From positions 1 through 26,160 of the IMG/VR virus record IMGVR_UViG_3300048836_001182: a stretch of DNA of 26,160 nucleotides; one strand, given 5' to 3'. The position numbers and the translations under genes are program-made. This document shows, piece by piece, positions 1-25,189 of this stretch. The notes beneath the pieces were generated by a model that had not been told where the DNA came from, did not search any database, and saw nothing but the letters and a program-made list of their open reading frames with translations. Numbering within the stretch: the stretch's first letter is position 1; each line of letters begins with the position of its first letter. Source of the stretch: a virus.

Positions 1-1068
1 ATGGGAACGATCACCCCTCGCCGGCGGGCCGACGGCTCGACAGGATACACCGCCCAGATTCGGCTCAAGCACCAGGGCAAGGTCGTCCACTCCGAAGTGG
101 AGACCTTCAGCAACCGGGCGCTGGCCAAGGAATGGCTGAGCCGCCGCGAGAACGCCCTGCAGGCGCAGAAGGCCCGAGGTGAGCCCGTCGGCCGTCGAAT
201 GACCCTGGGCGAGCTCGTGGGCTGGTACGAGGGCCGGGAGCGCCCTGACCAGCCCTGGGGCCGGTCGAAGCGGGCCGACTTGGCCAGGCTGAAGGCCGGC
301 ACGCTCAAGGACCGGAAGGTCGAGGACCTGGCACGCCCGGACTTCATAGCCTACGTGGAGGCCCGCCGCGCCGCCGGCGCCGGGCCGGCCACGGCGGCCA
401 ACGACATCATTTGGCTGCGCTCGGTGTTCAAGGCGGCTGCAGCAGTCCTGGGAACGCCGGTGCCGATCGCCGCCCTGGATGAGGCAGCCGAGTACTTGCG
501 ATCGGCCCGGGTCGTGGCCAAATCCCGCAGCCGCGATCGCCGGGTCACGACCGAAGAAGAGAAGCGGATCCTCGAGCACCTGGCCAAGCGCGATCGCCGC
601 GGCGAGATCCCGATGGTCGACGTCGTCCAGTTCGCCCTGCTGACGTGCCGGCGGCAGGAAGAGATCACGCGCTTGCAGTGGATGGATCTTGCGAAGGGGA
701 GGAGCACCGCCCTGCTGCGCGACGCCAAACACCCACGGCGAAAGCTGGGCAACCACCGCACGTTCCGGGTGCCGGCCGATGCCTGGGCGATCATCGATCG
801 CCAGCCGAAGGTTGTCCTCGAGGACGGCAGCGAGGATCCGCGGATATTCCCGTTCAACCCGAAGTCGATCGGCGCGGCGTTCACCAGGTGCGTGCAGTTC
901 CTGGGGATCGGCGACCTGCACTTCCACGACCTGCGGCACGAGGCCACGAGCCGGCTGTTTGAAAGGGGCTACTCAATTCAGGAAGTGGCGCAGTTCTCGC
1001 TGCACGAATCGTGGACGACTCTCAAGCGGTATACGCACCTAAGGCCTGAAGACGTCCCGGAGCGCTGA
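1..1068 (+). CDS. int: Tyrosine-family phage integrase
   Basis: Site-specific recombinase that would integrate and excise the phage at att sites. The C-terminal catalytic domain has the full tyrosine-recombinase set: R218 in LLTCRRQEEI, K243 (or K248) in DAKHPRRK, the HDLRH box with H309 and R312, H335, and the nucleophile Y344 in LKRYTH. Residues 1-65 resemble an arm-type DNA-binding region and about 70-165 a core-binding SAM-like domain. The length of 355 aa is normal. The ATG is the very first base of the window, so an upstream start or ribosome site cannot be judged. It converges with the minus-strand protease gene, 17 bp from its stop, which leaves no room for an attachment site on that side; att presumably lies left of base 1. 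Confidence 0.95.
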   Translation: MGTITPRRRADGSTGYTAQIRLKHQGKVVHSEVETFSNRALAKEWLSRRENALQAQKARGEPVGRRMTLGELVGWYEGRERPDQPWGRSKRADLARLKAGTLKDRKVEDLARPDFIAYVEARRAAGAGPATAANDIIWLRSVFKAAAAVLGTPVPIAALDEAAEYLRSARVVAKSRSRDRRVTTEEEKRILEHLAKRDRRGEIPMVDVVQFALLTCRRQEEITRLQWMDLAKGRSTALLRDAKHPRRKLGNHRTFRVPADAWAIIDRQPKVVLEDGSEDPRIFPFNPKSIGAAFTRCVQFLGIGDLHFHDLRHEATSRLFERGYSIQEVAQFSLHESWTTLKRYTHLRPEDVPER

Positions 1069-1085: not shown

Positions 1086-2000
1086 TCAAGCTGGAACTGC
1101 CGCCGCCCCGGACACGTAGGTCATGCCGTCGTGATTCTCGATGATTTTGACGGCGGCGGTATTGCTGAAAGTGTGAGTGTACGTGTGGTGCAACGACAAC
1201 ACCGCATCCTGAAGCTTCTGGTCGTCCTCGAGCTTTACAACATTGAGGCCTAGGTCGGCCGCCTGCTGGCACGTGATATGGCGGTTGTGGCTTTTCGAGG
1301 TCGATTGCTTTCCCAGCAAATCGGCAATTTGCTCGACCTTCTCGTCTTTCAACGGGTCGTCTTTGAGCATGCAGTCGCTTAGTACTTTCCGAAGCAGGCT
1401 GTCCGACCAGTCGACCCAATGTTGGCAGCTCGTGATCAAAGTCGGCCAGAACTTGCCCAGAATCGGCTCCCAAAGGCCGATCGCATTCGGGTTGTTCAGT
1501 ATCTCGTTCCGCGCATTTGCGAACTCTTCTAACAGTCCTTGAGCAGGCATGCCGTTGATCTGCGGGTCAACAGGTCCAATGCTCGACTGCCGACCCATTA
1601 TGATCTGCCTGCAGGATACGGCCATCAGCGTGCCGCCAGACATTGCAAGCTGCGGAATGATCGCGCGAATGTTCCCGTCGTACAGTGAATGCAGATAGTT
1701 AATTAGCGACTCAGTCGCAGCAACATCGCCGCCCGGCGTGTGCAGGATAAGGTCGAGTCCCTTTTCCCGTTTCATGTTGTGCGAGCAAGTCATGAAGCCG
1801 GTGAGGTCAGCGTCGTCAATGCCGAAATTAATGTGCTGACTGTTCTGGAGTTGCGGCTTCTGAAGCCATCCGGAGTAGTACGCCAGAGTGTTCCTACCGG
1901 TGTGCTTCGACACGCCTTTTAGATACTTGAGTCGAAGATGGTCGAAAGGGCTTTTGTTGTTGGCTTGAAGCTCGCCTAGAATCTCATTCCAGTTCGCCAT
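1086..2000 (-). CDS. SDH-type ClpP-fold serine protease (S49/SppA-like)
   Basis: Predicted soluble serine protease of the ClpP/crotonase fold, closest to the serine dehydrogenase proteinase (SDH) family. The core reads HTPGGDVAATESLINYL (residues 87-103), IIPQLAMSGGTLMA with likely nucleophile S121, then SSIGPVDPQ (139-147), the usual order for SDH/SppA proteases. H241 and the segment CQQAADLGL (244-252) resemble the C-terminal part of the family. No signal peptide or membrane helix is visible, so it should act in the cytoplasm. Its start overlaps the end of the 69-aa gene by 17 bp, so the two are probably co-translated. It is not a known structural or lysis gene and sits with other cargo beside the integrase, so a lysogenic-conversion or anti-phage role is possible but unproven. 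Substrate unknown. Confidence 0.8.
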   Translation of the reverse strand: MANWNEILGELQANNKSPFDHLRLKYLKGVSKHTGRNTLAYYSGWLQKPQLQNSQHINFGIDDADLTGFMTCSHNMKREKGLDLILHTPGGDVAATESLINYLHSLYDGNIRAIIPQLAMSGGTLMAVSCRQIIMGRQSSIGPVDPQINGMPAQGLLEEFANARNEILNNPNAIGLWEPILGKFWPTLITSCQHWVDWSDSLLRKVLSDCMLKDDPLKDEKVEQIADLLGKQSTSKSHNRHITCQQAADLGLNVVKLEDDQKLQDAVLSLHHTYTHTFSNTAAVKIIENHDGMTYVSGAAAVPA

Positions 2001-2193
2001 TCTTTCTCTCGCCCAAGAGGTTTCCGGTGCCGTCAGAGGTCACCGTCCGATACTTCACCTTGGGGGGAGTGGATCCGAAAAAACCATAAGCGGGTGCGCC
2101 GACCCAATTGCGACCACCCGAATGATCTCGCCGCTGCACCATCAAGCGGTCGAAGACCTTCTCTGCAATATCACGCTGAGTTGATTTGTCCAT
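1984..2193 (-). CDS. Hypothetical 69-aa protein upstream of the SDH protease
   Basis: I do not recognise the family. The N-terminus (DKSTQRDIAEKVFDRLM) looks helical and could be a short DNA- or protein-binding segment. The middle is rich in Gly, aromatic and basic residues, and the end is charged. The ATG at 2193 is preceded on the minus strand by AGGGGAGAGCGAGC, a good ribosome site. Its last 17 bp overlap the protease start, which suggests one transcript and a functional link, perhaps as adaptor or regulator of the protease. That link is inferred from position only. Confidence 0.6.
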   Translation of the reverse strand: MDKSTQRDIAEKVFDRLMVQRRDHSGGRNWVGAPAYGFFGSTPPKVKYRTVTSDGTGNLLGERKNGELE

Positions 2194-2212
2194 GCTCGCT
2201 CTCCCCTAGCGG

Positions 2213-2228
2213 GGGCACTCTAGTGCCC
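2213..2228. promoter_or_regulatory. Inverted repeat upstream of the 69-aa/protease pair
   Basis: Perfect palindrome GGGCACT-CT-AGTGCCC with 7-bp arms, about 20 bp upstream of the start codon at 2193. The position fits an operator for a dimeric repressor in the 5' leader of the two-gene unit. There is no T-run, so a terminator is less likely. Function is inferred. Confidence 0.4.
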
Positions 2229-3175: not shown

Positions 3176-4018
3176 TCAGTCAGAGTCTAGCTTGTTGGCG
3201 CGCCAATCGAATTGATCGGGTGAGTGGAATTGAGGCCGCCGAATCCGCTCCAGGTGGTCCAGCCAGAGATCAGTCTCAGGGATCTCTTGATGGTTGTTGA
3301 TGCTCTCTATGATCGGCGCCACGTCATCGACGATCGACATGAACTTGCTCCGCATCTCGTCATCGATAAAGGGAGCGTCTTGCGCGATCTCGTATAGGCG
3401 GGACGGGTAGTCGTTCGCCTTGCTATTGAAGTATGGGTTTCCAATGCGCTCTCTATTGAACAACTGAGCCTGGCGTTCCGCAGCGGACCTCTCCTCCTGC
3501 GTCCCCTTCCTCGAAGCACTTCGCGCAGCGGCTAGGATCGCCTTGTCAAAGCGGTCTCCGATTCCGAAAGCGATGTCCAGCACAAGAAAAGAAGACCAGG
3601 GGCTTAGTGCATTGCGAACCTCTTCCGCAGGCACTTTCAGGCTGATCAATTGGTGCTTTATCTCCCTAGTCATCTCCCATGACTGGCGCACCGTGGGCCC
3701 ACCCATTCGACCTACTCGGGCGAAATTGTCGAGCATGCTCTTCGAGAGGATAGCTGCAAAGTTCCGCAGCTTGTCTAGCACTTCGTCTGCCCTTATGAGC
3801 GTTTCGTCAATTTGCCTCATTTTCGCCTTGAAGCCGAAGGCACTAAGACTCTCCAAAAGCTCCAGCCTTGCTGCGAAGAACGCAACGATGCAAAGCGATC
3901 CACAGGTCGCTGCGAGTGCGGCGTTTCCCCCAATACCATGAACTGTGGCTGCGATTGCCATTGCAGCTGCGAAAAGCAAGACGATGGCATTGCCAAGCGT
4001 CCTAATGAATCGGTCCAT
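3176..4018 (-). CDS. Hypothetical two-helix membrane protein
   Basis: A 280-aa protein of unknown family. It has two N-terminal membrane helices (about 11-28 and 32-50) joined by a short Gly-rich loop, so both termini should face the cytoplasm. A long soluble part follows. Residues about 55-100 (FKAKMRQIDETLIRADEVLD and following) are strongly helical and may form a coiled coil. The C-terminal half is charged, with an aspartate-rich end. Minus-strand AAGGGG lies upstream of the ATG at 4018. It is transcribed away from the exported-protein unit at 4309, with about 290 bp of shared upstream sequence. Base composition is more A/T-rich than the tail genes, which suggests a separate origin. An exclusion or host-modifying role is possible, but nothing in the sequence proves it. 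Confidence 0.65.
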   Translation of the reverse strand: MDRFIRTLGNAIVLLFAAAMAIAATVHGIGGNAALAATCGSLCIVAFFAARLELLESLSAFGFKAKMRQIDETLIRADEVLDKLRNFAAILSKSMLDNFARVGRMGGPTVRQSWEMTREIKHQLISLKVPAEEVRNALSPWSSFLVLDIAFGIGDRFDKAILAAARSASRKGTQEERSAAERQAQLFNRERIGNPYFNSKANDYPSRLYEIAQDAPFIDDEMRSKFMSIVDDVAPIIESINNHQEIPETDLWLDHLERIRRPQFHSPDQFDWRANKLDSD

Positions 4019-4308: not shown

Positions 4309-5208
4309 ATGAAGAAGAGCATAGTTCTCACCGTTGCAATCTTGGCAATCGCGGCAGCCGCCGCCGTTTTCCTACTTCGGGACATGCGCGATCCCACTGA
4401 CCGCGCATCTCAGATTCCTGCCAAACCAGCCGAAAATGAACTGCCTATCGACGCTCCGAAGGAGCCGTCCGCTCCAGATGAGCCGAGAATCGTCGCGCCG
4501 GCCCTTGAAACAAGCAATGATTTTGGATTGCAGGTCGCGGTTGCCATTCCGTTGGCGAATGGTGGCGACGCAAAGGCGGCGGATCTGGTCGCACGTGCCT
4601 TTGAGTACTGCAGTTTCTACTCACAATCCTCTGACAAGTTCAAAGCCCACATCGATGCCCTCGCCAGTGCGAGCCCTGATCAGGGCGCCGCACTACGCGC
4701 AGTCGGCAGCAAGATCGAGGAACGCTGCGCCGGGGTCAGTCCGGGCGAGCCGATTACAGATGAAGAAATCCGCCGCTGGCAGGCGATCGCGTCGAAAGGC
4801 GGCCATCTGCCCGCCCTGATTCGAACTGCTGTCACGGACGTCGACTCGGTTTCAGATGAGGAGAAGGGCCAGCTGTTTCGAGCGGCAGCAAACTCTCGTG
4901 AGCCCCAAACAGTGCTTGAGGCGGCGTCTTTGATTAGCTTCGCCGCCGCAGTCGACTATGACGGCCTGCCAGTTGGAGGCGGAGAAATTGATCAGTACGC
5001 CTGGGAGATTGCCGCATGCCGACTGGGCGCTCCATGCGCCCGCGGAAGCCTCTTCATGGATCAACTTTGCCTAAGTGGCGGCGGTTGCAATGCAGCCAGT
5101 TATGAGGACCTGGTTCGCAACCAGTATATCGCGCAAGGCAGTGATGCCTTGCTTGACCAGAAGGTTCGGGCCGTCTTGGCTCATTTGACCGACTCGAAGA
5201 GTCGATAG
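4309..5208 (+). CDS. Hypothetical exported or membrane-anchored protein
   Basis: A 299-aa protein with an N-terminal MKK and hydrophobic helix (about 5-23, IVLTVAILAIAAAAAVFLL). No lipobox cysteine follows, so it is probably a membrane-anchored periplasmic protein. A Pro/Glu/Asp-rich linker (about 25-65) leads to an alpha-helical domain with scattered cysteines, including CRLGAPC and a C-terminal CLSGGGC pair that could form disulphides in the periplasm. The helical pattern recalls Sel1/TPR-like host proteins, but I cannot name a family. GAGG lies 5 bp before the ATG. It is followed 8 bp later by a second exported-protein gene, and both end at the terminator at 5715. A lysogenic-conversion cargo gene is the best guess. 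Confidence 0.7.
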   Translation: MKKSIVLTVAILAIAAAAAVFLLRDMRDPTDRASQIPAKPAENELPIDAPKEPSAPDEPRIVAPALETSNDFGLQVAVAIPLANGGDAKAADLVARAFEYCSFYSQSSDKFKAHIDALASASPDQGAALRAVGSKIEERCAGVSPGEPITDEEIRRWQAIASKGGHLPALIRTAVTDVDSVSDEEKGQLFRAAANSREPQTVLEAASLISFAAAVDYDGLPVGGGEIDQYAWEIAACRLGAPCARGSLFMDQLCLSGGGCNAASYEDLVRNQYIAQGSDALLDQKVRAVLAHLTDSKSR

Positions 5209-5216
5209 GAGTGGGA

Positions 5217-5699
5217 GTGATATATAGAGCAGCACTAGTCATGGTTCTGGCCTTTTTTGGTAGCAGCGCGCAGGCTCAGAACTGCACTACAAGCATTGAT
5301 TTCGACGGACAGGGCTACCGCGATCACCCGAATCTCGACGGCGTCGGTATGGGAAGCCTCGACGTAGAGCGACGGAACGCCACCTACACGGCTGTCGGTG
5401 TCTACAGGACAATCAACGGACCCAACTCCTTGCCAAACCAATCTGTGGTTTGCGTCACCTACGATGACGATTCGACAGAAAAGTTCAAGATAATTTGTCA
5501 GGCAGGGACGGCATGCGTCTCCCCCATCGCGGGTACTTTCCGCGCTCCCAGCAATTGGGGGGGTGCGAGCGCGCCGGGCTGGTACAGCTGGGGTGGCGGC
5601 GGCTGGGTCTACCGCGGACCGGTGGGCTGCATCCACTGTTTTTGGGGTGAAGTGGGCGACGTAACCCCGGCCCCACCGCCCCCTACGATTCCACAGTGA
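5217..5699 (+). CDS. Hypothetical secreted cysteine-containing protein
   Basis: A protein of about 160 aa with a classical signal peptide: hydrophobic ALVMVLAFFG, then SSAQAQN, with probable cleavage after AQA. The mature part has several cysteines, an acidic middle, a Gly/Trp-rich segment (GWYSWGGGGWVYRG) and a Pro-rich C-terminus. No family is recognised. A GTG at 5211 is also in frame. I prefer the GTG at 5217 because AGGAG (5207-5211) lies 5 bp before it. It probably shares a transcript with the gene ending at 5208, so the two proteins may work together in the periplasm or outer membrane. Confidence 0.65.
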   Translation: MIYRAALVMVLAFFGSSAQAQNCTTSIDFDGQGYRDHPNLDGVGMGSLDVERRNATYTAVGVYRTINGPNSLPNQSVVCVTYDDDSTEKFKIICQAGTACVSPIAGTFRAPSNWGGASAPGWYSWGGGGWVYRGPVGCIHCFWGEVGDVTPAPPPPTIPQ

Positions 5700-5831: not shown

Positions 5832-6623
5832 TTAGAGGAGTTGAGCCTGCCGGTCATCCCAGCTCTTAATGATCAGCTCGCCGGAGGCATGATCCCGGCC
5901 CTCCCGTCCGACCGTGTACCGGATCTGCAGAGGCACTAGGGCGAACCCCTCGAACACCCGCCGGATCTCCGGATGGTCGTTGATCGACAGCACCGCCCTG
6001 CCCTGCAGCGATCGCATCAGCTCGGCCATGCGCTCGTACTCGCTGAAGGGAAAGTCGACGCCGTAGCCCTCGGTCTCCCAGTAGGGCGGGTCCAGGTAGT
6101 GCAGCGTTGCCGGCCGATCGTAGCGCTGCAGGCAGTCGTGCCACGGCAGGTGCTCGACGATCACGTTGGCCAGGCGCACGTGCGCGGCGCTGAGCTCCTC
6201 CTCGATCCGCAGCAGGTTGAGCTTGGGCCCGTTGCCGCTGGCCACGTAGCCGAAGTTCTGGCCAGAAACCTTCCCGCCGAATGCCAGCTTCTGGAGGTAG
6301 AAGAACCGGGCGGCCCGCTGGATGTCGGTAAGGGTCTCGGGCCGCTCGAGCTGACACCACTCGAACAGCTGCCTCGAGACCAGCGACCACCGGAACATGC
6401 GGACGAATTCTTCCAGGTGGTGTCGCACGCAACGGTAGAGGTTCACCAGCTCGCCGTTGATGTCGTTGAGTACTTCGACTGGCGCCGGCGTCGGCCGCAT
6501 CAGCAGCGCGGCCGCGCCGCCGGCGAAGGCCTCGACGTAGCACTCGTGGGCCGGGAAGTGGGGATAGAGGTGCTTGAGCAGCCGACGCTTGCCGCCTGGC
6601 CAAGGAATGATGGGATTGGGCAT
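5832..6623 (-). CDS. D12-class DNA adenine N6-methyltransferase (Dam-like)
   Basis: Predicted to transfer a methyl group from S-adenosylmethionine to N6 of adenine in a short DNA site. It has the D12/Dam layout: PWPGGK at 7-12, the SAM-binding VEAFAGGAA (30-38), and catalytic DPPY at 178-181. Other conserved family features are NDINGELVNLYRCVR (53-67) and a C-terminal GELIIKSW. The length of 263 aa is typical. No restriction endonuclease gene is next to it, so it looks like an orphan phage methylase, useful against host restriction or for regulation. It is the last gene of the late-operon direction, about 150 bp past the DUF2188 gene and facing the terminator at 5715-5746. The specificity (for example GATC) cannot be read from the sequence. 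Confidence 0.9.
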   Translation of the reverse strand: MPNPIIPWPGGKRRLLKHLYPHFPAHECYVEAFAGGAAALLMRPTPAPVEVLNDINGELVNLYRCVRHHLEEFVRMFRWSLVSRQLFEWCQLERPETLTDIQRAARFFYLQKLAFGGKVSGQNFGYVASGNGPKLNLLRIEEELSAAHVRLANVIVEHLPWHDCLQRYDRPATLHYLDPPYWETEGYGVDFPFSEYERMAELMRSLQGRAVLSINDHPEIRRVFEGFALVPLQIRYTVGREGRDHASGELIIKSWDDRQAQLL

Positions 6624-22921: not shown

Positions 22922-24292
22922 TCACTCCGGCTGCGGCCAGGCCGTCGGCGCGGCGCCGGCGTTCTTGAACAGGCCGCGATGGTCAATCGCCTTGGCGCCG
23001 AACACGTGGCGGCACTTGACCTGCAGGCCGTCCACCTCGAAGCCCGCCTTCGACTCGGTAAACACACCCTCGTGGCCTTCGAGGTAGGCGTACTCGATGG
23101 TGTCCACGCCCGCCGGATCGGCCGCCAGGAAGTAGGCGGTCTGGCTGGAATCGTGCAGGCGCGGCTCCTCGATCGGCGTCAGCGACGGACCGATGACGTT
23201 CTTGTCCTGGGCACGCGCCGCGGCGAAGCCGGCACCGGTGACCTTGAGCGCCGCCTCGTACAGATCCGGCGGCACGATCAGGAAGCGCGGACGGACCGTG
23301 ATGTAGCGGCCCTCGAGGCCCTTCTGCAGCAGCATCATCTTGCGGGCTTCGGCCAGCGGGCTCGCCACCGCCGGGTCGGGATGCACGGCGTCGATCAGCG
23401 CCGCGGCGGTGCCCAGGTTGCCGTGGGCGCCGTCGAACAGGGCGATGTTGTCCGACATCACCGCGTTGGCGGTGAGCACGCCGTAGACGATGTCGCTCTC
23501 GAGGTCGCCAGCCGAGGCACCGAACGCCATCGGGATGCTGGTCAGCGCGTTGAGGTCGTCGTTGATGATGGTTTCCCAGGTGATGGCCACGATGCGGCCG
23601 TACTTCTGCACCCGGTACTTCTCGGCGCCATCGGTGAAGGTGCCGAACTCGTACTCGGCGCCCTCGAGCACGCGCTTGAGGTTGGGTGCACCGGACAGCT
23701 GCACGCGGCTGACTTCCTTGAAGTCGGGCAGCGTGGCCTGGCGGGTCCAGGGAACGAAGGTCCGCGACGTGCCCTCGTAGCCGCGGCGCAGGGTCTTGGT
23801 GATCACCGCCTCGAGGATGTTCGGGAAGTCGCTGGTGGACTGCAGGGCCTTGATCGCCACTTCGCCGCGGGACATGCCACGGGTGCGCTGGCCGGCGCGC
23901 TCGACGCAGTCGCGAGCCAGGTCCATGAGCGTGAACCCACGGAACTGCGTCGACCGCTCGTCGTGCTTGAACGCCTGCGGGTCCTTGCGGTTGAGCGTCG
24001 CCAGGATCGCGCCTTCGCGATACGTCGCGGTCTCGTCGCGGGTGATCTCGGTGCGGTGGTTGCCGGCGATCGGCGTGGTGTCCTTGCCAAGGAAGTCGAG
24101 CAGCTGGGTGCTGGCGGCCTCCGGCGTGGTTTCCTGGTTGTCCTCGCAGGCGGTCTGCAGCGCCTTCAGCGCGGCGCCGTCGAGGTCCTGGCGGGACAGG
24201 AACGGGCTGAACTTGGCGCGGATGGCTTCACGGCGGGCCTTGTCGGCCGCCAGGACGGCCTTGGCCTGCGCCTTCTTCTCTTCTTCGGTCAT
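22922..24292 (-). CDS. Possible free major capsid protein from an internal start
   Basis: In-frame ATG at 24292 (residue 300 of the fusion, MTEEEKKAQAK) preceded by its own ribosome site GGAG at 24301-24304, 8 bp away. Starting here gives 456 aa: the helical scaffolding segment plus the full capsid domain, without protease or linker. The domain border and the ribosome site coincide, so two products at different levels are likely, as with the nested lambda C/Nu3 genes. It is not proven by sequence alone. Confidence 0.5.
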   Translation of the reverse strand: MTEEEKKAQAKAVLAADKARREAIRAKFSPFLSRQDLDGAALKALQTACEDNQETTPEAASTQLLDFLGKDTTPIAGNHRTEITRDETATYREGAILATLNRKDPQAFKHDERSTQFRGFTLMDLARDCVERAGQRTRGMSRGEVAIKALQSTSDFPNILEAVITKTLRRGYEGTSRTFVPWTRQATLPDFKEVSRVQLSGAPNLKRVLEGAEYEFGTFTDGAEKYRVQKYGRIVAITWETIINDDLNALTSIPMAFGASAGDLESDIVYGVLTANAVMSDNIALFDGAHGNLGTAAALIDAVHPDPAVASPLAEARKMMLLQKGLEGRYITVRPRFLIVPPDLYEAALKVTGAGFAAARAQDKNVIGPSLTPIEEPRLHDSSQTAYFLAADPAGVDTIEYAYLEGHEGVFTESKAGFEVDGLQVKCRHVFGAKAIDHRGLFKNAGAAPTAWPQPE

Positions 24293-25189
24293 GACGGTTT
24301 CTCCGGGGTCGTTACCGGCGGGCGCCGGCGTGGTGTTTCCAGCCGATGCGGCCGGAGTTGCGGGGGCGGGCGCGGTGACGCGCGGCGCGGAAGGGGTAGC
24401 AGCAGGCGCCGGGGCCATGCGCAGGGCAGCGGCCACGGCCAGGCCGGCATAGCGGGCGGGGGCGCCGCGGGCGCTGATCCGCTCGAGCAGCTGGCTGGCG
24501 AACTGGCGCGCGGACTCGTCGGGCTCGGCGGACTCTTCCTGCGGCTCGGCAACGGCGTCGGCAAAGCCCTCGGCCACCGCTTCATCGCCGGTGTAGTAGT
24601 GGTCTTCGCCGTCCTGGAGCAGCGCGAGGATGGCCTCGGTGGTCTTGCCAGACTTCGCCACGTAGGCAGCCGCCATCGACTCGCTGAACTTGTCCAGGAT
24701 GTCCGCGTACTTCCGCAGCTCCTTGGCGTTGCCCATGATCCCGCCCCAGGGCGCATGGATCATCAGCAGCGACGCCGGCGGCATGGTCACGGTGTCGCCC
24801 GCCATGGCGATCAGCGAGGCGGCGGACATCGCGACACCGTCGACGGTGACGGCCTTGGTCGCCGGGTGGCGCTTGAGCGCGTTGTAGATCGCCATGCCAT
24901 CGGCGACGCTGCCGCCATAGCTGTTGATCCGGACATTGATGGTGGCCACGGAGTCATCGAGGGCGTTGAGCTGCTCTGCCACCGATTGGGCCGTGACCGA
25001 CTCGCCCCACCAGCTGTCGCCGATGTCGCCGTAGATCATCAGCTCGTAGGCGTCGGCCTGGTTGGCGACCGGCCGCAGGGACATGCACGGATCGATGGCC
25101 GGGCGATCACGCGAGGTGCGCGGCGCGCCCATGACGGCGGTGGCGTAGAGGCCTGCGAGCAGGGCGACGTGCAGAGCATGCTTTTTCAT
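22922..25189 (-). CDS. ClpP-type prohead protease fused to major capsid protein
   Basis: A 755-aa fusion. Residues about 45-215 form a ClpP-fold protease that would process the prohead: INSYGGSVADGMAIYNALKR, nucleophile S122 in GVAMSAASLIAMAG, H145 in LLMIHAPWGG and probable D196 in DGEDHYYTGDEAVAEGFAD. A Pro/Ala-rich linker spans about 255-297. Residues about 300-390 are helical and charged like a scaffolding (delta) segment. The rest is the capsid subunit, with FVPWTRQATLPDFKEVSRVQ, VAITWETIINDDLNALTSIP and VRPRFLIVPPDLYEAALKV. The N-terminus (MKKHALHVALLAGLYATAVMGAP) looks like a signal peptide, which is odd for a head protein. The ATG at 25189 has GGAG 7 bp upstream and overlaps the portal stop as TGATG. 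A second start at 24292 may make free capsid subunit. Confidence 0.88.
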   Translation of the reverse strand: MKKHALHVALLAGLYATAVMGAPRTSRDRPAIDPCMSLRPVANQADAYELMIYGDIGDSWWGESVTAQSVAEQLNALDDSVATINVRINSYGGSVADGMAIYNALKRHPATKAVTVDGVAMSAASLIAMAGDTVTMPPASLLMIHAPWGGIMGNAKELRKYADILDKFSESMAAAYVAKSGKTTEAILALLQDGEDHYYTGDEAVAEGFADAVAEPQEESAEPDESARQFASQLLERISARGAPARYAGLAVAAALRMAPAPAATPSAPRVTAPAPATPAASAGNTTPAPAGNDPGETVMTEEEKKAQAKAVLAADKARREAIRAKFSPFLSRQDLDGAALKALQTACEDNQETTPEAASTQLLDFLGKDTTPIAGNHRTEITRDETATYREGAILATLNRKDPQAFKHDERSTQFRGFTLMDLARDCVERAGQRTRGMSRGEVAIKALQSTSDFPNILEAVITKTLRRGYEGTSRTFVPWTRQATLPDFKEVSRVQLSGAPNLKRVLEGAEYEFGTFTDGAEKYRVQKYGRIVAITWETIINDDLNALTSIPMAFGASAGDLESDIVYGVLTANAVMSDNIALFDGAHGNLGTAAALIDAVHPDPAVASPLAEARKMMLLQKGLEGRYITVRPRFLIVPPDLYEAALKVTGAGFAAARAQDKNVIGPSLTPIEEPRLHDSSQTAYFLAADPAGVDTIEYAYLEGHEGVFTESKAGFEVDGLQVKCRHVFGAKAIDHRGLFKNAGAAPTAWPQPE
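24301..24304 (-). promoter_or_regulatory. Internal ribosome binding site (GGAG)
   Basis: Minus-strand CCCGGAGAAACCGTCATG inside the protease-capsid gene. The GGAG core and 8-bp spacing match the operon's other genes, such as the tail tube and DUF2190. It decides the start of the putative free capsid protein. Confidence 0.5.

What the first reader, a model, noticed from the sequence alone, without database searches (positions are those of the whole stretch)
1086..2193. SDH-type protease and a coupled 69-aa protein as phage cargo
A ClpP-fold SDH-like serine protease with an intact AMSGG nucleophile motif sits beside the integrase, overlapped by a small gene and preceded by an operator-like palindrome. 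It has no place in head, tail or lysis functions. A small-protein/protease pair with tight coupling could be a toxin-type or anti-phage module, but nothing proves that.
Basis: partly seen in the sequence, partly recalled or inferred. Interest (0 to 1): 0.52.

Follow-up and report, generated by a model that had tools for sequence, protein, structure and literature searches.

The report
Mobile protease and its hypervariable partner
A phage carries a two-gene cassette, a ClpP-shaped protease plus a tiny, fast-changing partner protein, and relatives of this cassette travel on phages, plasmids and transposons across bacteria, which suggests an undescribed protective or toxin-like module.

Summary
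Window 1086-2000(-) encodes a 304-aa ClpP-fold SDH-type serine protease and 1984-2193(-) a 69-aa protein that overlaps it by 17 nt, beside a convergent integrase. The pair is not peculiar to this phage. Relatives occur in 128 IMG/VR stretches, at least 579 genome-contig stretches, 7 phage records and 37 plasmids (4 of these near full length). A small gene of about 67 codons abuts or overlaps the protease in nearly all representatives. Its sequence is hypervariable but under purifying selection in the close pairs tested; in some loci it lies downstream instead. A blind profile search of 12,483 frames found its relatives almost only next to the protease. The cassette is moron-like cargo in E. 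coli prophages (42 of 5426 genomes) and a passenger of intact IS1-family elements, so it is general mobile cargo, sporadic and not housekeeping. No library or paper searched names a function. Best reading: a toxin/defence-type cassette, a soluble protease restrained by its co-made partner. That is inferred: toxicity, inhibition and anti-phage activity are untested, and enrichment beside defence genes was not clear. The window's own 69-aa protein is a divergent member, placed mainly by position.

The parts
1086..2000 (-). SDH-type ClpP-fold serine protease, 304 aa; Ser121 nucleophile, Gly90-Gly91 oxyanion motif
   Evidence: (phrog_11747 4.4e-85)
1984..2193 (-). 69-aa small partner protein, translated before the protease
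   Evidence: positional partner in relatives; weak similarity to the partner in the closest relative L011 (phmmer E 0.26 against best shuffled 0.61; shared YRTV..xGTG by eye)
1984..2000 (-). 17-nt overlap of the two genes (likely translational coupling)
   Evidence: in 33 of 76 examined pairs the genes overlap or abut and in 40 more the gap is 1-20 nt
2199..2207 (-). purine-rich Shine-Dalgarno-like stretch before the 69-aa ORF
   Evidence: read by eye; not tested
2213..2228 (.). perfect 7-bp inverted repeat, possible operator or hairpin
   Evidence: not conserved in relatives
1..1068 (+). convergent tyrosine integrase (context, not part of the cassette)

Best explanation
A mobile two-gene cassette of toxin/antitoxin or abortive-infection type. 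SHOWN: a conserved ClpP-fold serine protease with invariant nucleophile is encoded together with a hypervariable small protein (median 67 aa), usually upstream, sometimes downstream, and the two travel together on prophages, plasmids and IS1-family elements. INFERRED: the co-translated small protein binds the protease, probably with its C-terminal hydrophobic/Ser/Thr-rich strand lying in the substrate cleft like a detached propeptide inhibitor, and keeps it silent. An invader (another phage, or a rival element that changes or destroys the partner) frees the protease, which cuts a host or phage protein and stops the infection, to the benefit of the lysogen or its kin. The partner's rapid divergence would reflect its role as the sensing side.
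For: Pair conserved across phyla. Partner under purifying selection, dN/dS 0.11-0.24 where dS was estimable, in enterobacterial and related types. Partner relatives in a blind search of 12,483 frames lie next to the protease in 24 of 25 hits at E<10; 14 of 15 among hits from loci not used for training, where 2.7% is expected. Gene order can invert while the partner is kept. Nucleophile invariant, 103 of 103. Sporadic distribution. Moron-like unit in E. coli prophages. Passenger of IS1-family elements with 8-bp duplications. No conserved third gene: the next gene is co-directional within 100 nt in only 16 of 104 loci.
Against: No toxicity, inhibition or phage-plating data exist here. PADLOC has no match, and defence-gene neighbours are not clearly enriched over random regions of the same genomes (181 against 141 PADLOC families in 205 against 205 proteins). 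A folded read-through fusion of partner and protease gave no confident docking (partner block means of pLDDT 36-76). One relative (L086) has no partner that I could find. The window's own partner is not hit by the partner profile.
Confidence: 0.38

Rival explanations
1. The small protein is the dedicated substrate or activator, not the inhibitor: the protease cleaves its Ser/Thr-rich C-terminal segment to release an active peptide, or needs the partner to reach its targets (adaptor).
For: Hypervariability with a recurrent hydrophobic-x-Ser/Thr strand near the C-terminus, as a cleavage segment could show; the partner tail has very low predicted confidence, as if disordered; no AAA+ partner gene recurs nearby.
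Against: No recurrent exporter, modification enzyme or receptor gene beside the pair; dN/dS 0.11-0.24 shows most of the small protein is constrained in close relatives.
Confidence: 0.25
2. A counter-defence or host-takeover protease: the mobile element uses it to destroy host immunity proteins or regulators on entry or at induction.
For: Carried by phages, plasmids and IS elements; some cellular copies have restriction, Ssp or other PADLOC-family neighbours.
Against: In E. coli prophages it sits between lysis genes and terminase with a terminator-like site after it, rather than among early genes; IS1 passengers have no infection phase.
Confidence: 0.15
3. General stress or protein-processing peptidase that mobile elements happen to carry, with the small protein a folding chaperone.
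For: ClpP/SppA-like fold; tight gene coupling.
Against: Sporadic presence and mobility argue against a housekeeping role.
Confidence: 0.12
4. A virion or head-maturation protease of the phage, displaced in the genome.
For: Weak profile similarity to phage head-maturation proteases (phrog_53 5.3e-08, NF045542 4.7e-06).
Against: The window has its own head protease/capsid fusion; most annotated relatives sit outside head modules, and some in IS elements and plasmids; the Porphyromonas copy does lie between portal/adaptor and tail genes.
Confidence: 0.03

Closest known systems
SDH-type ClpP-like serine proteinases (Pfam PF01972; NCBIfam NF047768)
   Same: Central domain, oxyanion PGG and nucleophile region match above the Pfam cut-off; E. 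coli relatives carry this name in RefSeq.
   Different: NF047768 scored 95 bits against a cut-off of 250; only residues 78-162 match the Pfam profile; distinct N- and C-terminal parts and a regular small partner.
PHROG 11747 (function unknown)
   Same: Near full-length match of the protease, 4.4e-85.
   Different: The PHROG has no function and does not describe the small partner.
ClpP (family S14)
   Same: Best solved fold, Z 13.6, 172 aligned, rmsd 4.0.
   Different: 12% identity; extra C-terminal part beyond residue 262; no AAA+ gene recurs nearby; catalytic His position not identified.
1510-N/NfeD and SppA (S49)
   Same: Profile similarity (2deo, E 0.00086) with the nucleophile serines aligned (that the 1510-N serine there is its nucleophile is recalled); SppA among the top Foldseek hits.
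   Different: No membrane segment evident; the stretch holding the S49 lysine lies outside the alignment, so a Ser-Lys dyad is not shown.
Lit protease of the e14 prophage (recalled; only search listings seen)
   Same: Prophage-encoded protease acting in abortive infection: an analogy of function only.
   Different: Different fold and mechanism; Lit is triggered by a phage capsid peptide and has no operon partner of this kind.
Type II toxin-antitoxin operons with protease-like toxins such as RosmerTA (recalled)
   Same: Two tightly coupled genes, small one usually first, sporadic and mobile.
   Different: The small protein shows no DNA-binding or known antitoxin family; toxicity untested.

Membership tests
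Pfam PF01972 SDH_protease | Profile score above gathering cut-off | tested here: met
   80.2 bits against 31.3, residues 78-162
NCBIfam NF047768 SDH family Clp fold serine proteinase | Equivalog score cut-off of 250 bits | tested here: not met
   95 bits
PHROG 11747 | Near full-length profile match | tested here: met
   4.4e-85, residues 17-298 of 304
ClpP (S14) | ClpP fold | tested here: met
   Z 13.6 to ClpP chains
ClpP (S14) | Ser-His-Asp triad in ClpP positions and an AAA+ partner | tested here: inconclusive
S49 SppA/NfeD | Ser-Lys dyad | tested here: inconclusive
   Alignment to 1510-N ends before the lysine; position 183 is K in 87 of 103 relatives, position 285 in 103 of 103
Phage head-maturation protease | Located in the head module as the phage's only such protease | tested here: not met
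   Separate head protease/capsid fusion at 22922-25189; most annotated relatives outside head modules
Type II toxin-antitoxin system | Two-gene operon, small partner tightly coupled to effector, mobile and sporadic | tested here: met
Type II toxin-antitoxin system | Effector toxic alone and neutralised by bound partner | not testable with these tools
   needs expression and binding assays
Known anti-phage defence systems (PADLOC-DB 2.0.0) | Match to a defence protein model | tested here: not met
   no family at E up to 1 for protease or partner
Anti-phage defence island gene | Enriched next to known defence genes | tested here: inconclusive
   205 neighbours: 181 PADLOC families; 205 control proteins: 141; strong restriction and Ssp hits near some copies

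The most novel reading that the evidence does not exclude
A new class of mobile immunity or addiction cassette in which a self-contained ClpP-fold protease, without any AAA+ unfoldase, is held inactive by a co-translated, hypervariable inhibitor-like peptide that doubles as the phage sensor; the same two genes, in either order, are traded among phages, plasmids, IS1-family transposons and chromosomes across bacterial phyla.
Probability: 0.25. Interest if true: 0.85.

Novelty: new variant of a known kind. Interest (0 to 1): 0.6.

Why it matters
A widespread, strictly linked two-gene cassette whose small partner is often unannotated (for example in the E. coli RefSeq regions seen here) has been hidden by its size and divergence. 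If it is an immunity or addiction module it would be a ClpP-fold effector with a hypervariable controller, and the E. coli prophage version makes it directly testable in laboratory strains.

Tried and rejected
Head-maturation protease: rejected, the phage has its own. Housekeeping peptidase: rejected by sporadic distribution. Conserved operator: the palindrome exists but is not shared. Conserved third gene: none; recurrent neighbours were integrase-like proteins (by eye; clusters of 7 and 4 loci), an IS1-type transposase (6 loci) and an antisense small gene beside it (5 loci). Defence-island enrichment: not decisive; I scanned 205 of 219 neighbour proteins of 38 loci and 205 of 214 control proteins; the counts are of PADLOC families, which a single helicase or Wadjet-type gene can inflate, so they are a rough measure. 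PHROG scans of the same neighbours gave few phage genes, among them several terminases and two integrases. Complex modelling by a read-through fusion: no confident docking; a first fusion alignment (A9) was dropped because its small-only rows were misaligned. A partner profile did not reach the window's own 69-aa protein. tblastn in the phage collection: none at E up to 1 for the 69-aa protein or for the L117 partner. Literature: ten searches, listings only apart from one passage of PMC12419801 (unrelated); none describes the pair; bioRxiv and most subscription papers are not covered. Rows dropped before counts: L020/L021 (same contigs as L002/L003) and six relatives whose reading from the matched start was short or stop-interrupted (L009, L127, L134, L146, L148, L157). 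Four of the 110 representatives, with under 150 nt upstream, were left out of the 106, and those with under 400 nt upstream out of the 100.

Full report
WHAT IS THERE. The record is a 26,160-base virus record (the loci tables show the same IMG/VR type of record). On the minus strand a 69-aa ORF (2193-1984) overlaps by 17 nt the start of a 304-aa ORF (2000-1086), which ends 17 nt from a convergent integrase (1-1068, +). The 304-aa protein matches Pfam SDH_protease above cut-off, falls below the NCBIfam SDH equivalog cut-off, and matches the functionally unknown PHROG 11747 over nearly its full length. PADLOC gives nothing at E up to 1 for either protein. The small protein has no Pfam, NCBIfam or convincing PHROG match.

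FOLD. With 95 sequences in the alignment AlphaFold gives pLDDT 94.7 and pTM 0.92. The second look with VIA-align ranks ClpP chains first at Z 13.6, with 172 residues aligned at rmsd 4.0. Foldseek lists ClpP and SppA, and among viral predictions giant-virus SDH proteinases. Ser121, Asp83, His87, Gly90, Gly91, Ser139, Asp145, Trp177, His238, Glu258, Gln264, His271, His272 and Lys285 are invariant in 103 of 103 aligned sequences. A profile aligns the nucleophile with a serine of 1510-N. The general base was not assigned. I see no long hydrophobic segment in the protease, so it is probably cytosolic (inference from the sequence and model).

THE PAIR IS CONSERVED. The genome titles span many bacterial phyla and one archaeal MAG (L146, whose protease reading is short). 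From 168 starting points 110 representatives at 80% identity were made. Of 106 with at least 150 nt upstream, 100 have an ORF of at least 45 aa ending between -100 and +45 of the protease start. With a stricter rule the count is 90 of 100, against a shuffled mean of 17.2 (sd 3.6, max 27) and 154 of 332 for other large genes. Of 76 partners examined (75 clustered ones and the window's), 33 overlap or abut the protease, 40 lie 1-20 nt away and 3 further; the median length is 67 aa.

THE PARTNER IS A REAL, FAST-CHANGING PROTEIN. phmmer at E<0.01 joins 63, 10 and 2 of the candidate ORFs (single linkage, so loose). In the 11 of 14 close pairs with estimable dS, dN/dS is 0.11-0.24, with dS saturated in several and some pairs nearly duplicates. 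These pairs are of enterobacterial and related types, not the window's type. Recurrent features, read by eye, are an N-terminal helix-like stretch such as EIxxVFxxLGL or EFYxxxGI and a later segment of the kind YSxST or YRTVTxxGTG. In a blind search with a profile from 16 partners over 12,483 stop-to-stop frames of both strands of 110 loci, 25 hits at E<10 were 20 upstream-adjacent, 4 downstream-adjacent and 1 elsewhere. Among hits from loci not in the training set 14 of 15 were adjacent, where 2.7% is expected (binomial 1.6e-21, treating loci as independent, which they are not fully). Five rounds of iteration gave up to 6 non-adjacent hits at E<10, but every frame included in the profile was adjacent.

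ORDER CAN INVERT. In L122, L141, L152 and L165, where no convincing upstream partner is seen, the same kind of small protein starts directly after the protease. L073 and L139 look similar by eye. In L086 I found none. Loss of order with retention of the partner argues for a functional bond rather than a chance neighbour.

IT MOVES. In E. coli, 42 of 5426 genomes carry the L048-type pair, all on chromosomes; in the two regions I opened it lies in prophages between lysis genes and terminase, and the small gene is not annotated. A terminator-like hairpin follows the protease (L171 13173-13192). In L172 another terminator-like sequence precedes the small gene at 5940-5959 (read by eye). Two of the listed partial matches in other E. 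coli prophages (H68, H69) end close to the downstream hairpin (query 2599 and 2610, that is L172 7198 and 7209). Over the representatives a terminator-like site lies within 140 nt after the protease in 15 of 109, against 0.7 expected. In L007, L132, L161 and L160 the pair lies inside IS1-family elements of 2424-2849 bp with matching terminal repeats. The 8-bp target duplications are perfect in L007, L132 and L161 and 7 of 8 in L160 (L007's transposase is annotated as IS1 family). My ORF scan missed the partner of L132 and L161 because it runs further into the protease; both have one when read by eye. Porphyromonas, Shewanella Mu-like and Gordonia phages and a Klebsiella plasmid-borne prophage-like region carry the protease in other places. 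Sampled prevalence is 5 of 274 and 7 of 295 genomes, including the centre genome of each sample.

WHAT IT DOES. No tool or paper gives a function. The features (two coupled genes, one an enzyme with strictly conserved nucleophile, one small and fast-evolving, sporadic, carried by many vehicles) are those of toxin-antitoxin and defence cassettes, and I rate that reading at 0.38. Evidence that would have strengthened it was mixed. Neighbours of 38 cellular copies include Type I, II, IIG and IV restriction, SspB and other PADLOC families with very strong scores, but random stretches of the same genomes also gave many. An attempt to model the complex through a read-through fusion of an enterobacterial-type pair showed a folded protease and a poorly predicted partner with no confident contact. 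The mechanism of restraint is therefore inference.

THE WINDOW'S OWN COPY. Its protease is a regular member; the closest relative found is L011 at 63% identity. Its 69-aa partner is divergent. It is tied to the family by position and overlap and by a short segment shared with L011's partner, with weak support (phmmer E 0.26; not hit by the profile). The palindrome upstream is present but is at best an untested operator.

VERDICT. The conserved partner, the inverted gene order and the IS1 and prophage contexts make it a stronger and broader finding than stated. The toxin or anti-phage role remains a hypothesis that simple laboratory-strain experiments can settle.

Noticed in passing
L007 4806-7439, L132 3836-6259, L161 3676-6524, L160 3927-6462: IS1-family elements carrying the protease pair as passenger, with 8-bp target duplications (7 of 8 in L160) and, in L007, L132 and L160, a further small antisense gene with a GGxARA-type motif after the protease.
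   Followed up: partly
window 5832-6623 (-): Orphan Dam-family D12 adenine methyltransferase in the phage (PF02086 2.3e-22; phrog_56 1e-92).
   Followed up: no
window 4309-5208 (+) and 5211-5699 (+): Two plus-strand genes with N-terminal hydrophobic (secretion-like) segments and no convincing family match, possible lysogenic-conversion cargo.
   Followed up: no
window 3176-4018 (-): 280-aa protein with hydrophobic N-terminal segments and no Pfam, NCBIfam, PADLOC or PHROG match.
   Followed up: no
L171 and L172 (E. coli prophages): The 66-aa partner ORF beside the annotated SDH protease is unannotated in these RefSeq regions.
   Followed up: partly
L009, L127, L134, L146, L148, L157: Protease readings that are short or stop-interrupted from the matched start, possible decayed copies or start errors.
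   Followed up: no
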